Source: an uncultured Draconibacterium sp. (GTDB lineage: Bacteria > Bacteroidota > Bacteroidia > Bacteroidales > Prolixibacteraceae). From it: a stretch of 64,000 nucleotides of DNA. Made by a program: the position numbers and the translations under genes. Of the stretch, positions 37,703 through 53,988 are shown in pieces. Under the pieces are notes generated by a model. That model ran no database searches. It saw only the letters and a program-made list of their open reading frames with translations, and was not told the DNA's origin. The stretch spans positions 3,654,501-3,718,500 of the forward strand of contig NZ_OY781884.1 of assembly GCF_963677155.1 (NCBI RefSeq). The letters are read 5' to 3'. Each line of letters begins with the position of its first letter. Position 1 is the first letter of the stretch.

Positions 37703-38269
37703 ATGAGACATAATAAGAAATTTAATCACTTAGGCCGTACAGCGCCACATCGTAAAGCGATGTTGGCAAACATGGCAAGTTCACTTATCGCGCATAAGAG
37801 AATTTCAACTACTGTTGCAAAAGCGAAAGCATTGCGTATGTACGTTGAGCCACTGATTACAAAGGCAAAAGAAGATACTACACACTCTCGCAGGGTAGTT
37901 TTTAGCTATCTGCAAGATAAAGATGCTGTATCGGAATTGTTCCGCGAAGTAGCTGTTAAAGTTGCTGACCGTCCGGGAGGATACACTCGTATTCTTAAAA
38001 CTGGTAGCCGTTTAGGCGACAACGCCGATATGTGTATCATCGAGTTGGTTGACTTCAATGAAGCTATGTTGGCTGCAAAAGAAGAAGCTGCAGCACCTAA
38101 AAAACGTCGTTCTCGTCGTGGTGGTGCTAAAAAAGCTGATGCTGCTGCACCAGTTGCAGAGGCTGAAGTTGTTGAAGAAGTTAAAACTGAAGAAGCTCCG
38201 GCTCCTGAAGCAAAAGCTGAAGAAACAACCGAAGAGCCTAAAGCTGATGAAGCAAAGAAAGAAGACTAA
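37703..38269 (+). CDS. rplQ: 50S ribosomal protein L17 with long acidic Ala/Glu tail
   Basis: 188 residues. The core (1-118; [36 protein letters not shown]) is normal. [10 protein letters not shown] stretch leads into a tail of about 50 residues made almost only of Ala, Glu, Lys, Pro, Val, Asp and Thr. Such tails are common on Bacteroidota L17. A strong terminator follows, closing the supercluster. Confidence 0.97.
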
Positions 38270-38289
38270 TAATTTTCTTTACCATATTG

Positions 38290-38320
38290 AAAAGCCGGAT
38301 TGTTTTACAATCCGGCTTTT
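38290..38320 (+). terminator. Intrinsic terminator of the ribosomal supercluster
   Basis: AAAAGCCGGATTGT (38290-38303) pairs perfectly with ACAATCCGGCTTTT (38307-38320) around TTT, and a further T follows. It starts 20 bp after the rplQ stop. Confidence 0.88.
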
Positions 38321-38346
38321 TCATTTATATAAGCCTTGTTATATAG

Positions 38347-38635
38347 GCCGGCTTTCCGCTTTGTGAAAAAGTAGCCACTATAATTTTTTGCTTTCCGCAG
38401 CCGTGTAACAGACGAACTACAAGATTTAGCTGCTTCCTGCAACCGTGCAAGAAGCTTTCCACAACATTTTTTGTCCGCTGCAGCTGTGCTACATGGTCGC
38501 CAATAAGTTTTTTGGGTTGTTGCAGCCGTGCAGGAGGCGAGCCAACACGTTTTTTTGCTTGCTGCAGCACTGCAACAAGGTAGCCAACAAGTTTGCTGAG
38601 CAATTACACGGCTGCAGGAAGCCTAAAATCAGGTA
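38347..38635. repeat. Degenerate ~42-bp tandem repeat array between rplQ and the hybrid kinase gene
   Basis: T-runs begin at 38384, 38425, 38467, 38508, 38550 and 38592, spaced 41-42 bp. Each is followed about 13 bp later by a GC-rich core such as GCAGCCGTG, at 38397, 38439, 38480, 38522 and 38564. Several units form hairpins: GCTTC/GAAGC around TGCA-ACCG-TGCA in unit 2, CTTG/CAAG around TGCA-GCAC-TGCA in unit 5. The last core (about 38603-38622) is inverted relative to the first. Open frames cross the array on both strands with a 14-residue period but look non-coding. It lies between convergent genes. Confidence 0.75.
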
Positions 38636-38636
38636 G

Positions 38637-41192
38637 TTATAAGGAGGTTGTATTCAAATGCTTGTTAATTACGGCAAGCAACTGTTCGCGGGTAAGTGGT
38701 TTTCCCACAAAGTCGTCGCAGCCGGCCTCAAAAGCTTTTACTTTATCATCGTCGGAAACATAAGCTGTTTGTGCAATGACCTTAATTCCGGGAGCTACCG
38801 ATTTTATTCTTTGGGTAGCTTCGTAGCCACTTATATCGGGTAGTCCAATATCCATAAGCACCAGAGAGGGCATTTGTGAGCAGGCAATATCAACACCTTC
38901 TTTCCCGTATTCGGTACACACTAGTTTTAGCCCGGTGTCGTCAAGTATTTTTTGAATCAGGCGTGTGTTGGCAAAATTATCTTCTACCAATAAAATGGTT
39001 TCGTTATTAAATTGGTATACTTTTCCGTTAGTGTTGGCATTTTTGTTAGCCGGTTTTACTTCGGCTTGGTGGTAAGGAATGCTAAAATAGAAGGTGGTTC
39101 CCCCGATTTGCCCTTTTGAGTGGTCTTTCTGTACCGATTCTAGCCTGATTGTGCCTCCCAGTAGATCTAACAAGCCTTTTACAATCGACAGCCCCAAACC
39201 GGTACCACCGTATTGTTTCTTTTTATCGGTGTGCACTTGGGTAAAACGTTCGAAAATGGCCTGTTGTTTATCGACCGGAATACCAATTCCGGTATCGCGT
39301 ACATAAAACTCAATAATCTTTTCATCTACTATAGAGCAACCTCCTTCAATTGTTCCCTCATCAGTAAATTTATAGGCATTACCAATGAGGTTAATCAGTA
39401 TTTGTCGGAGCTTGCCTTTGTCGGTAACAATAGTATCGGTTAGGCACGAACAGGTTTTTAAATTGAAATGTATGTGCGGTTTATTAAGCTGGTGTTGGTA
39501 TTCTTTAAAAAAGATTTCTAGTTCCGAAAACAGTTCATTTAAACTAAATGTTTCATTAAATAGAGGTAATTGCCCCGATTCTATTTTCGCAAATTCAAGA
39601 ATATCATCGATAATACTTAATAGGTTGTTCGAACTTTGATTAATAATATCAGAGTATTGTATCAGTTGTTCCTTGTTGTTGTATGAGTGTGGCAGTAGCG
39701 ACGAAAACCCAATAATAGCATTCATTGGTGTACGTATTTCGTGGCTCATATTGTGTAAAAATGCGGTTTTCAGGCGGTTGCTTTCTTCGGCCTGTTCTTT
39801 TGCTATTACTAATGCGCTGGCTGCTTTTTTTCGTTGTGTAATATCGTGTATAATCGAGTGGAAAACGATTTTATTGTCGATCTCAACACTGCTGCTGAAA
39901 ACTTCAACATCGCGTATTTCATTATTTTTTAACCGATGCTTAAGTTCATAACGAATACTTCCTTTCTTCTTCAGATTTTCAGTTTCTTTTTTGATATTCT
40001 CATCCGAGAGGGGATTGATCTCATATATTGTCATATTCCGAAGTTCCTCTCTGCTCCACCCATAAAAATTTGATGCTGATTTGTTGGCATCAATTATTTG
40101 CGATGTTTCCGGGTCGACCAATATTTTTATTGCTGAATGATCTTCAAATAACTTCCTGAATTTCTCTTCGCTTTTTTGTAATGTATGTTCAGTTTCGCGT
40201 CTTTTGGCTTCTACTCTTAGCACATTTCTGACTTTTGCCAGCGAATAGAAGTAGAATGCCAAGGCAAGTAGCAATAAAAAAAAGGCAATAAAAGAATGAT
40301 TTCGGAAACGGGTTAGTGCATTAAAAATATCTGCTTCATGCGATGAAATAAGGATGGTCCAGTAGGTATTCCCCAACGAAGTGCGATAAAAGGTAACGTA
40401 TTGTTCTTCAATAAGGGCCTCTCCATAGCTGGTTTCTGCACTATGATAACTTTTGAAGATTCCGCTGCTGTCGAGGGTTATATTTGACATTAGTTGCTTG
40501 GAAAGTTCCTGTTGTTGAGTGTCATTTATAAATGTTCTTCCGGTGTGTTCTTCAACCGAGCAATAAATTTCTGTTCCGTTTTCGCTGAGTAGCCAGGTTT
40601 CCCCCGTTCCCTGCGTTTTTATATTGCCCAGGTACTGTTTTCCTAATTCATCTATTGGGATAAGAATAGCCAGACTGCCCATAAAAGAGGATCCGCTATA
40701 CACCGGAACATGATAGGCAATGCTCAGATATCCCTGCACCGACATAAACACATCGCTGATAACTGATTGGTGGGTTCTTAAAACCTGTTTTACATGATCC
40801 TGGTACGAGATATCATTGCCGATTACAGATGGTTTTTCCGGGAAGGTAGACAGTATTCGGCCCGTAGAGTCGATCCGGGTGATAGCTGCTAAAATAGAGC
40901 TGTGTTCATTATAATAACCTTGTAGTATTTCTTTGCTACTGTCAGTTACCCTAATAACATCTTCAAGCTTTGCAAGAAATTTCAAATCGGCTTCCGAATC
41001 CTTAAAAAACGAGGTAATTCCCATGGAAGCTGTTTGAGCCAGAATGAGTTGTTCGTTATTGAATTCGTTAATTGTGGTAAGTTTAATATTGCGGTATACT
41101 AAAAAGAATACAATGGAGAATAGTGTTAGCAAAACCGGAATAAACAGGTAACGGTAAAACGATTTTATTTTAGTGATTAGCACATAATTCAT
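38637..41192 (-). CDS. Hybrid sensor histidine kinase with extracellular Cache-type sensor, PAS and receiver domains
   Basis: 851 residues from the ATG at 41192 (MNYVLITKIKSFYRYLFIPV); a GTG at 41213 would add seven. Membrane helix about 15-35, a periplasmic double-Cache-like sensor to about 290, a second helix about 300-320, a PAS domain about 345-460, then HisKA (HNMSHEIRTPMNAIIGFSSLL), an ATPase domain (GLSIVKGLLDLLGG) and a C-terminal receiver (ILLVEDNFANTRLIQ, acceptor Asp in VLMDIGLPDISG, lysine in VGKPLT). No output domain, so it needs a phosphotransfer partner or acts through protein contacts. The ligand is unknown. Confidence 0.9.
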   Translation of the reverse strand: MNYVLITKIKSFYRYLFIPVLLTLFSIVFFLVYRNIKLTTINEFNNEQLILAQTASMGITSFFKDSEADLKFLAKLEDVIRVTDSSKEILQGYYNEHSSILAAITRIDSTGRILSTFPEKPSVIGNDISYQDHVKQVLRTHQSVISDVFMSVQGYLSIAYHVPVYSGSSFMGSLAILIPIDELGKQYLGNIKTQGTGETWLLSENGTEIYCSVEEHTGRTFINDTQQQELSKQLMSNITLDSSGIFKSYHSAETSYGEALIEEQYVTFYRTSLGNTYWTILISSHEADIFNALTRFRNHSFIAFFLLLLALAFYFYSLAKVRNVLRVEAKRRETEHTLQKSEEKFRKLFEDHSAIKILVDPETSQIIDANKSASNFYGWSREELRNMTIYEINPLSDENIKKETENLKKKGSIRYELKHRLKNNEIRDVEVFSSSVEIDNKIVFHSIIHDITQRKKAASALVIAKEQAEESNRLKTAFLHNMSHEIRTPMNAIIGFSSLLPHSYNNKEQLIQYSDIINQSSNNLLSIIDDILEFAKIESGQLPLFNETFSLNELFSELEIFFKEYQHQLNKPHIHFNLKTCSCLTDTIVTDKGKLRQILINLIGNAYKFTDEGTIEGGCSIVDEKIIEFYVRDTGIGIPVDKQQAIFERFTQVHTDKKKQYGGTGLGLSIVKGLLDLLGGTIRLESVQKDHSKGQIGGTTFYFSIPYHQAEVKPANKNANTNGKVYQFNNETILLVEDNFANTRLIQKILDDTGLKLVCTEYGKEGVDIACSQMPSLVLMDIGLPDISGYEATQRIKSVAPGIKVIAQTAYVSDDDKVKAFEAGCDDFVGKPLTREQLLAVINKHLNTTSL

Positions 41193-52152: not shown

Positions 52153-52406
52153 GTAAGTTGATGAATGAATAAAAGCCAGCCTATAACAGCCTATATTGCA
52201 GGGGGGCAGGAGGTTCTCCAATTGCGAATTCTCATATGGCAAATAATTTATACCGTGTGTTAAGTGATCAACAAGTTATTGTGGTGTTAGTTTAAAATTA
52301 ATATAGTTGTAAAGAGGTGACAATTGTTTGGGGTATTTGTTAAAAATGAGTGGTTGACTTTTTTGTTTTGAAGACAGAACAACAAGATAGACGAGGTAGA
52401 ATCATA

Positions 52407-52502
52407 TTTTGCGTACAAAACACCCATTTTGAAAATTCAGATGCTTGTTTTATTTGTAAAACATCTGTTTGAAAATATTTTTTTTATGTTTCGTACGCAA
52501 AA
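52407..52502. repeat. Long inverted repeat, 96 bp, with nested hairpin
   Basis: TTTTGCGTACAAAACA (52407-52422) and TGTTTCGTACGCAAAA (52487-52502) are inverted copies with one mismatch in 16. Inside, CAGATG (52439-52444) and CATCTG (52462-52467) pair around GTTTTA/TAAAAC. As RNA or cruciform this is a long structured element; function unknown. It might be a MITE-like remnant near the IS3 fragment. Confidence 0.6.
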
Positions 52503-52820
52503 CAAGTATCTGAACTGTTATTTTCCTTCGCGCCACACCACGTCGAAAGTTTATGTTGTTGTTTTTTAAAACTTAACTACCAGAAACATAAAAAATATGT
52601 TTAGTTTTGAAGCACTAAAATTGAATACCGTGAATACACGCCCTGGAATAACAGTAAGAATATTTTTCATAATTAAATAATAATTACCTAAGGTTTATGC
52701 TAGCTCCGATATAAGAAGTTATGGTATGCCTTTGGTTGACAGATAAATGAGTTCCGGCTAGGCAAAACCTATGCGAGAAAATGCAAATCAAACAATCTAT
52801 AAATAGTTAAAAATCATCAA

Positions 52821-53324: not shown

Positions 53325-53744
53325 ATGAAAAAGTTGATACTGACAGTAGTTATAGCAGGCATTTTTTTTGCGTGCGGAAATAAGGTAGAAAGTAATCTTA
53401 CCGATTACAGCTGGGAAGTTGAAAAAGTTCTGGACCTTAAAACAGGAGCAATTAATCAGACCGGGAAGGTCAACGAGAAAATATGGAATTTTGCTTCCGA
53501 TAATACCTATCAGTATAAAACTTCTGATGGTGGTAATGAGGATCTTATAAAAGGCGAGTGGCAATTAAATAACAACTATTTGCTGATTTATAATGAGTTC
53601 GATTCTACTAACGTTCAGATTGAGAAAATTAATGCTGAGAAAATGGTTTGGTTGATACCTGGAGACGACTCTCTAAGATTTTATCTAAATTCAAAAGCGA
53701 AACAGGTTGAAGTAGCCAATTTTCCAAACAAGCATAAACAATAA
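53325..53744 (+). CDS. Small lipoprotein, lipocalin-like
   Basis: 139 residues. Lipoprotein signal LTVVIAGIFFACGNKV with Cys17. The mature part (YSWEVEKVLDLKTG, IWNFASDNTYQYKTSDGG, GEWQLNNNYLLIYN) resembles the lipocalin-like small lipoproteins common in Bacteroidota, which often carry the W-x-F-x-x-D-x-T-Y pattern. Function unknown. A tandem repeat array follows. Confidence 0.65.
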   Translation: MKKLILTVVIAGIFFACGNKVESNLTDYSWEVEKVLDLKTGAINQTGKVNEKIWNFASDNTYQYKTSDGGNEDLIKGEWQLNNNYLLIYNEFDSTNVQIEKINAEKMVWLIPGDDSLRFYLNSKAKQVEVANFPNKHKQ

Positions 53745-53751
53745 ACAACAT

Positions 53752-53988
53752 TTTAAACCCAGCCCTTCGGGTGTTTGAGCTTTAAACAAAAGTTTGTGTC
53801 CCAGCCATGGACAAGTTGGCGTTAAATGTATGTTTATGTCCCAGCCATGGAATCTTTGACATTTAAACAAACCTTTAAGCCATTCCCTGCGGTTGTTTGA
53901 CCTTTAAAAGTTTGTTTATGCCTCCACCTCCTGAGAGTTGGCCTTTAAACAAACCTTTAACGCTGTTCGACGAGTTTTGGGCTTAACC
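53752..53988. repeat. Degenerate ~40-41-bp tandem repeat array between convergent genes
   Basis: TTTAAA or TTAA words recur at 53781, 53821, 53862, 53903, 53943 and 53982, spaced 39-41 bp, each followed by TTTG/TTTATG and a GC-rich core such as CCCAGCCATGG (53800 and 53840) or CCCTTCGGG (53763-53771). The copies are divergent and carry stops in the frames I checked. It lies between the stop of the small lipoprotein gene and the stop of rarA, as the other array lies between rplQ and the kinase gene. Confidence 0.7.

What the first reader, a model, noticed from the sequence alone, without database searches (positions are those of the whole stretch)
38347..38635. Degenerate 42-bp tandem array with hairpin-forming units and an inverted last copy
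At least six units of 41-42 bp carry a T-run and a GC-rich core. Units 2 and 5 keep the same hairpin shape with different paired bases (GCTTC/GAAGC versus CTTG/CAAG, each enclosing TGCA-N4-TGCA), a covariation-like pattern that suggests selection on structure. The final core is inverted relative to the first, so the array is bounded by matching ends. Spacing is close to four DNA turns. It sits just after the ribosomal terminator and before a convergent gene end, which recalls BIME-like gyrase or insulator elements. I know of no described element of this form.
Basis: partly seen in the sequence, partly recalled or inferred. Interest (0 to 1): 0.72.

Follow-up and report, generated by a model that had tools for sequence, protein, structure and literature searches.

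The report
Solo 42-bp repeat array of DUF6261
A short row of 42-letter mirror-like DNA repeats between two genes turns out to be a stray copy of the kind of row that usually sits in front of an uncharacterised protein gene (DUF6261) in Bacteroidota bacteria, pointing to a two-part protein-plus-repeat system for which I found no description.

Summary
The array is real: six units spaced 42,41,42,42,42 bp (38383-38633), far beyond chance, last unit inverted. Covariation is not supported in its own unit family. Its relatives were found in 17 of 37 genomes of the genus and 4 of a sister genus. Of 54 loci of this family, 8 lie 5' of a gene for DUF6261 (PF19775, unknown function); 46, the window included, have none in the stretch examined. 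More broadly, 75 of 93 DUF6261 loci have an upstream tandem array, every one of period 41-43, while unit sequences are mostly unrelated between DUF6261 clades. A distal 'cap' module recurs beside arrays with unrelated units. Two more solo arrays of other unit families lie in the same window. So the finding is an orphan copy of the array half of a two-part DUF6261/array module; one held paper, unrelated by title, names DUF6261. Likely mechanism (inferred): DUF6261 binds cognate phased dyads; RNA-based and mobile-element readings remain open.

The parts
38334..38382 (+). left edge: degenerate sequence before unit 1, starting CCTTGTTATA; possible worn-out unit 0 (by eye)
   Evidence: sequence; shared with orthologous loci, e.g. 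L025-L027
38383..38424 (+). unit 1
   Evidence: unit profile 29.9 bits
38425..38466 (+). unit 2
   Evidence: unit profile 29.7 bits; 9 of 12 stem pairs
38466..38507 (+). unit 3 (41 bp after unit 2)
   Evidence: unit profile 27.3 bits
38508..38549 (+). unit 4
   Evidence: unit profile 44.3 bits
38550..38591 (+). unit 5, cap-proximal, highest-scoring unit of the array
   Evidence: unit profile 45.8 bits; best CM match of this array, E 1.7e-9
38592..38633 (-). inverted last unit = start of the conserved right cap
   Evidence: cap consensus
38634..38644 (+). end of the cap (TAGTTATAAGG); holds the stop codon of the convergent histidine kinase (38637-38639); the further cap module seen in other copies is not visible here
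   Evidence: no REP-like palindrome in the window
52359..52557 (.). second solo array in the window, period 41, another unit family
   Evidence: 77% over 204 bp to arrays upstream of DUF6261 in L270/L273; lag scans
53741..53928 (.). third solo array in the window, period 41, family of the genome's own DUF6261 copy L234
   Evidence: 74% identity to the L234 array; lag scan

Best explanation
What it is (shown by comparison): a solo copy of an array that elsewhere stands 5' of a gene for DUF6261 (PF19775). The gene-linked module reads [cap]-[41-42 bp dyad units]-[gap]-[DUF6261]. How it works (inferred): each DUF6261 clade binds its own array as an oligomer, one dyad unit per protein dimer, with the units on one face of the helix because 42 bp is about four turns; at the gene-linked copy this sets expression of DUF6261, and solo arrays are dispersed extra landing sites that silence, insulate or merely sequester the protein. 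Period is fixed because geometry matters; unit sequence is free to drift because gene and array change together, the array being renewed by tandem duplication from the cap side. In the window genome the cognate gene appears only as a C-terminal remnant, so this array is probably an orphan relic.
For: 8 of 54 loci of this family carry DUF6261, array always 5', nearest unit 153-241 bp from the conserved start; relative orientation is the same in 7 by their caps, and in L101 (no recognisable cap) by the CM hits, though the cruder score sum says the opposite. 75 of 93 DUF6261 loci have an upstream array; best lag 42 in 53, 41 in 21, 43 in 1, nothing else from 30 to 60; downstream 5 of 93. Same scan, lags 20-89: best lag 41-43 or 82-85 upstream in 50 of 54 DUF6261 loci (27 of 29, 23 of 25), downstream in 3 of 54, and in 7 of 54 control stretches. 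Arrays resemble each other in 29 of 34 pairs with protein identity 80% or more, 3 of 25 at 70-80%, 0 of 1751 below 30%. Cap module at the distal end of 10 further loci with other units, 1 hit in 800 kb of other G000 DNA. A second family repeats the pattern: of 12 places 4 are gene-linked (one gene matched only over its first 54 residues), 8 not. Dyad but no covariation in this family, as for a protein site. Cap-proximal units closest to consensus (Spearman -0.45). DUF6261 changes fall mostly at third codon positions (33/16/91 in L206/L211). Remnant in the window genome, L242, 88.5% identical to L207 over 87 aa.
Against: No binding is shown. DUF6261 has no recognised DNA-binding domain; its model is poor (pLDDT 58.6; best PDB fold match E 0.16). 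Pooled arrays show compensatory changes (z 4.97), better explained by a hairpin in RNA or single-stranded DNA. 18 of 93 loci miss the criterion; in 8 of them no 41-43 signal leads, including a 225-aa group of five (L271, L272, L274-L276). Proteins at 70-80% identity mostly do not share units (3 of 25; only the best piece of about 147 bp was compared), odd for a sequence-specific binder. Bacteroidota-type promoters within the array or between array and gene are not enriched (12 sense, 20 antisense).
Confidence: 0.5

Rival explanations
1. RNA reading: the array is transcribed as a chain of hairpins from a promoter in or beyond the cap, and DUF6261 is controlled by that RNA, as a toxin is by its repeat RNA in type III toxin-antitoxin systems; solo arrays are orphan RNAs.
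For: Few-copy tandem repeats directly 5' of one gene, unit sequences diverse while the protein is kept, pooled compensatory changes, a recurring cap like a leader, polarity along the array. Type III arrays are described as differing greatly in sequence and length (PMC4627078, passages).
Against: Period is nearly constant here, unlike type III; DUF6261 hits no toxin family; with one query protein, 1 of 72,556 plasmid and 1 of 50,697 phage records match; no covariation in this family; no Rfam match at gathering. Transcription not testable here.
Confidence: 0.2
2. Mobile-element reading: cap plus array is a MITE-like non-autonomous element; DUF6261, or the RAYT that moves the adjacent REP-like palindrome, is its mover.
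For: Homologous capped arrays at many unrelated sites; array 3' of the same symporter gene in G000, G032, G009 and G027 (remnant in G031), none seen in the 420 bases shown for G005, G036, G034, G035, G003, G033. Of two RAYT-type genes looked at (of five Y1 matches), one, L078, has GGGCTAAAGCCC plus a second palindrome at its 5' side; 10 of 38 caps are followed by an exact GGGCTAAAGCC. Short CCTTRTWA-like ends at the window copy (by eye).
Against: No target duplication or clean empty site found; DUF6261 shows no Y1 transposase match; the array stays by rplQ in 5 species; the palindrome is absent from the window and, as an exact match, from 28 of 38 caps.
Confidence: 0.2
3. Plain intergenic minisatellite or BIME-like element acting on supercoiling; the DUF6261 link is incidental.
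For: Intergenic, after a terminator, four-turn period; all gap types occupied.
Against: 75 of 93 upstream against 5 of 93 downstream of DUF6261, with one period only; cap module recurring beside unrelated units.
Confidence: 0.07
4. Coding: the minus-strand ORF 38325-38603 (92 aa) makes a 14-residue repeat protein.
For: Open across most of the array; 42 is a multiple of 3.
Against: 17 of 185 single-step spacings are 41, which breaks the frame; overlapping ORFs in relatives lie on either strand.
Confidence: 0.02

Closest known systems
BrickBuilt MITE of Porphyromonas gingivalis (PMC4596501; passages read)
   Same: Intergenic tandem minisatellite in a Bacteroidota genome, with leader and tail modules, variable unit number, several copies per genome
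   Different: 23-nt units, TIRs most like ISPg1/ISPg9, no partner gene family described in the passages read
REP/RAYT (REPtrons; PMC3733652, passages)
   Same: Palindromic repeats beside one gene-linked copy and dispersed without it
   Different: RAYTs are HUH tyrosine transposases and REPs 20-40 bp palindromes; DUF6261 hits no Y1 model and arrays are fixed-period tandems
Type III toxin-antitoxin (ToxIN, CptIN, TenpIN; PMC4627078, passages)
   Same: Tandem repeats directly upstream of one gene; repeat sequence varies greatly
   Different: pseudoknot RNAs (36 and 45 nt in the passages) of varying length; ToxN is a ribonuclease related to Kid; here an unknown protein, predicted all-helical, and a constant 41-42 bp period
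BOX elements of Streptococcus pneumoniae (recalled, no call)
   Same: Modular: end modules round a variable number of about 45-bp units
   Different: No linked gene family that I recall; different phylum and sequence

Membership tests
BIME / REP (enterobacterial; definition recalled) | REP-type palindromic units, often in alternating orientation | tested here: not met
   five direct 42-bp units and one inverted; no Rfam match at gathering
BIME / REP (enterobacterial; definition recalled) | gyrase or IHF binding | not testable with these tools
   needs binding or cleavage maps
REPtron (RAYT plus REP) | linked gene is a Y1/HUH transposase | tested here: not met
   linked gene hits only PF19775 over its cut-off, no Y1_Tnp
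Type III toxin-antitoxin | tandem repeat array directly upstream of one gene | tested here: met
   75 of 93 DUF6261 loci; the window copy itself has no such gene
Type III toxin-antitoxin | protein of the ToxN/CptN/TenpN ribonuclease group | tested here: not met
   no such hit in Pfam, PADLOC, NCBIfam or PDB sequence searches
Type III toxin-antitoxin | array transcribed and neutralises the protein | not testable with these tools
   needs RNA and toxicity assays
MITE (BrickBuilt type) | terminal inverted repeats with target duplication | tested here: inconclusive
   possible CCTTRTWA ends by eye; no duplication recognised in the loci compared
MITE (BrickBuilt type) | multiple copies per genome, intergenic, leader and tail | tested here: met
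   3 arrays in G000, more in several others; right cap conserved; a shared left module was not established
DUF6261-linked 41-42 bp arrays (class defined here) | period 41-42 with a dyad per unit | tested here: met
DUF6261-linked 41-42 bp arrays (class defined here) | homology to an array lying upstream of DUF6261 | tested here: met
   82% over 173 bp to L207, 74% over 257 bp to L211
DUF6261-linked 41-42 bp arrays (class defined here) | DUF6261 gene adjacent | tested here: not met
   no DUF6261 in the window at E 0.01: a solo copy

The most novel reading that the evidence does not exclude
DUF6261 and its 41-42 bp arrays form an undescribed two-part genetic element spread through Bacteroidota: one protein clade, one array family, with the period fixed, a recurring cap, and the unit sequence turning over faster than the protein, and with solo arrays seeded round the chromosome. 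It would be a bacterial system in which repeat geometry is conserved while recognition sequence diversifies, like a satellite DNA and its binding protein.
Probability: 0.55. Interest if true: 0.85.

Novelty: categorically new. Interest (0 to 1): 0.75.

Why it matters
It gives an uncharacterised protein family, present in 75 of 140 genomes of the window's family (Prolixibacteraceae by NCBI's placing of Draconibacterium) and in 12 of 392 sampled across the phylum (11 over Pfam's cut-off), a concrete partner and a testable biochemical role. It may also account for the main class of non-coding tandem repeats of this genome: in an 864-kb sample 8 of 10 non-coding regions found have lag 40-42 or 84, although only 3 of the 10 regions with lag 41-43 or 82-85 in that sample resemble an array upstream of a fetched DUF6261 gene. 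A constant period with free sequence is unusual and makes protein-array co-evolution directly testable.

Tried and rejected
Rfam: nothing at gathering in the window or in 20 array loci; the 'evalue' run on 38200-38800 gave nine sub-threshold hits lying mostly over the rplQ end and terminator hairpin. RNA folding of 38379-38640 is more stable than shuffles on both strands (z -3.27 and -4.48), expected for dyad units with an inverted end and not taken as proof of an RNA. Coding reading rejected (see rivals). A first covariation test on pooled arrays (z 30) was discarded because unit centres had been chosen by pairing; the held-out version gave z 5.02 and 4.97, and relatedness of units inflates even that. 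Promoter scans: a few Bacteroidota-type promoters between array and gene, no enrichment. Structure: one AF2 job on four close sequences, low confidence; Foldseek uninformative. Only weak library hits for DUF6261: NCBIfam EzrA model E 8e-4 at 18 bits against a cut-off of 562, PADLOC E 0.015-0.021, PDB Integrator subunit 7 E 0.07, Pfam Eco47II E 0.088 below cut-off. Viral contigs: an exact cap pattern hit 7 contigs (not followed up); four DUF6261 protein queries found no relative. CM search beyond the family: 1 of 393 genomes of the order, the window's own (capped candidates, strict filters). A control contained array-bearing loci and was replaced by the one. Sampling: the 93 DUF6261 loci are 29 of 30 returned (L199 dropped, no ORF called), 24 of 26 (L228 below cut-off and L242, a remnant, dropped) and 40 chosen's list, all from the window's genus or g21; several are near-identical orthologues, so independent cases are fewer. 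The cap profile was built from 28 of 38 caps (10 divergent or truncated ones dropped, the window's included). Papers (listings): Draconibacterium with intergenic repeat, 0; DUF6261, 1, unrelated by title; PF19775, 0; four wordings on tandem repeats in Bacteroides or Bacteroidetes gave no description of it (in one search only 15 of 88 papers were listed).

Full report
Observation. The window array is real: six 42-bp units at 38383-38633 (spacings 42,41,42,42,42), lag-42 identity 0.541 against at most 0.398 in 1000 dinucleotide shuffles over lags 20-100, with an inverted last unit. It lies between the rplQ terminator and the end of a convergent histidine kinase whose stop codon falls inside the array's cap.

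Relatives. The array DNA matches three places in its own genome and at least one place in 19 of 37 genus genomes at E 0.1, the weakest of these being doubtful. Named records with the cap pattern are Draconibacterium sediminis, D. orientale, Maribellus luteus and an uncultured Draconibacterium. A sequence-only profile of 69 units (R1) finds units in 21 of 140 genomes of the family (17 of 37 of the genus, 4 of a sister genus), and in 1 of 393 sampled from the order, the window's own. Arrays in the 40 first loci hold up to 11 detected units; of 185 single-step spacings 168 are 42 and 17 are 41. 38 of 56 loci examined lie within 15 mismatches of the 53-bp cap consensus. Units nearest the cap are best conserved (mean pairwise identity 0.79 at position 1, 0.57 at position 6; 32 arrays, orthologues included; the three units at positions 9 and 10 score high again). 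The array after rplQ is shared by five species (G000, G031, G005, G009, G036) and absent from others such as G007, G035 and G003; the gene beyond the array differs between lineages.

Dyad, not covariation. In this family the unit is a dyad about TGCA-N4-TGCA: 74.2% of stem cells pair, against 23.5-45.9% when slid. But percentage paired and covariation score were reached or exceeded in all 500 shuffles; four column pairs pair less often than independence predicts, one outside the stem (6/33) more often. On the whole that is the pattern of a two-fold symmetric protein site rather than a conserved RNA stem.

Partner gene. Eight arrays of this family, in two genera, stand 5' of a gene for DUF6261. 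Their relative orientation is constant in the seven with a recognisable cap; for L101 the CM hits agree and a cruder score does not. Turning the question round: of 93 DUF6261 loci from many genera, 75 have an upstream array by a fixed criterion, and the best lag between 30 and 60 is 42 (53 loci), 41 (21) or 43 (1), nothing else; only 5 of 93 have one downstream. In a like-for-like scan over lags 20-89 the best lag was 41-43 or 82-85 upstream in 50 of 54 DUF6261 loci, downstream in 3 of 54, and in 7 of 54 control stretches. A Parabacteroides distasonis DUF6261 gene on a plasmid record shows lag 83 (0.52) and 42 (0.48) just upstream as well. Unit sequences are shared mainly between close relatives: 29 of 34 protein pairs at 80% identity or more, 1 of 17 at 60-70%, 3 of 25 at 70-80%, 0 of 1751 below 30%. 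Many units are dyads (22 of 75 arrays beat all 60 column shuffles, median z 1.9). Pooled over families, doubly variable pairs keep Watson-Crick pairing more than independence predicts (475 against 407.4, z 4.97; slid controls -1.29 to 1.84; the window family's linked loci alone 18 against 17.7), a result that leans towards hairpins and against a pure double-stranded protein site.

Cap. A profile of the right module, built without units from 28 window-family loci, also hits the distal side of arrays in ten other DUF6261 loci with other units (L221, L264, L248, L263, L260 over 103-136 bp; L261, L245, L187, L247, L251 over 63-86 bp), in the same orientation for the main hit of each; an 800-kb sample of the window's genome gave one hit. 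The module includes the REP-like palindrome, and the shorter hits may rest largely on it. So the gene-linked element reads cap, array, gene, at least in these clades. In 10 of 38 window-family caps an exact GGGCTAAAGCC follows; GGGCTAAAGCCC also lies 5' of one RAYT-type gene of this genome. It does not occur in the window.

Solo copies. Of 54 window-family loci, 46 have no DUF6261 in the fetched stretch (a few stretches, such as L054, are cut by contig ends). The window itself has none. In the window genome the cognate gene appears as a C-terminal remnant (L242, 88.5% identical to L207 over 87 residues), and another DUF6261 copy (L221) is frameshifted but has its own, different array and the cap module. 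Two more solo arrays lie in the window: 52359-52557, like arrays before DUF6261 in L270/L273 (77%), and 53741-53928, like the array before the genome's own DUF6261 L234 (74%). For the L234 family, searched in 10 genomes, 4 of 12 places are gene-linked, one of them with only 54 residues of the gene matched. In 864 kb of this genome 8 of 10 non-coding tandem regions have lag 40-42 or 84, and 10 further regions counted as coding include three with lag 42; in the 40 fetched 20-kb stretches no DUF6261 gene was found, and only 3 of the 10 regions with lag 41-43 or 82-85 resemble an array upstream of a fetched DUF6261 gene, so most of these are either of families not fetched or of another origin.

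Protein. DUF6261 is about 245 aa, predicted all-helical at low confidence (pLDDT 58.6), with nine invariant residues in 20 diverse members, only weak hits among solved structures, defence and NCBI families, and changes concentrated at third codon positions in the seven pairs compared. With one query protein it matched 1 plasmid and 1 phage record.

Mechanism. Shown: the array is a solo member of a class of arrays bound to DUF6261 by position, with near-fixed period and variable sequence. Inferred: DUF6261 recognises its array; four-turn phasing suggests cooperative binding to double-stranded DNA; the gene-linked copy would be self-regulatory and solo copies dispersed sites. The pooled covariation and the type III-like layout keep an RNA reading alive, and the scattered capped copies keep a mobile-element reading alive. 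These are not exclusive.

Novelty. The closest described things are BrickBuilt, REPtrons and type III toxin-antitoxin loci. REPtrons and type III fail a defining feature tested here; BrickBuilt membership is open on inverted ends and differs in unit length and in having no linked gene in the passages read. In the held library DUF6261 is named once, in a Streptococcus paper unrelated by title, and PF19775 never; no description of a 41/42-bp array with this gene appeared in the listings. That library lacks most subscription papers, so prior mention elsewhere is possible.

Noticed in passing
window 52359-52557: Intergenic 41-bp-period array, homologous to arrays upstream of DUF6261 genes in another species (L270, L273).
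   Followed up: partly
window 53741-53928: Intergenic 41-bp-period array, homologous to the array upstream of this genome's own DUF6261 copy L234.
   Followed up: yes
L312:8810-9902: A 250-aa ORF with no Pfam match is followed at once by a 42-bp-period array, so a second protein family may be linked to such arrays, on the other side.
   Followed up: partly
L078:1860-1925: RAYT-type Y1 transposase gene with GGGCTAAAGCCC and a second palindrome at its 5' side, the same REP-like motif that follows some array caps.
   Followed up: partly
L271, L272, L274-L276: DUF6261 copies of 225 aa in five species show no leading upstream 41-43 bp signal.
   Followed up: no
L293:4967-5357: A strong 84-bp-period array (0.90 identity) in the window's genome between ORFs that look like cobalamin-synthesis genes (by eye), no DUF6261 in the stretch.
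   Followed up: no
window 38116-38272: The C-terminal tail of rplQ is itself a 42-bp-lag low-complexity coding stretch (Ala/Glu/Lys-rich), taken to be unrelated to the array.
   Followed up: no
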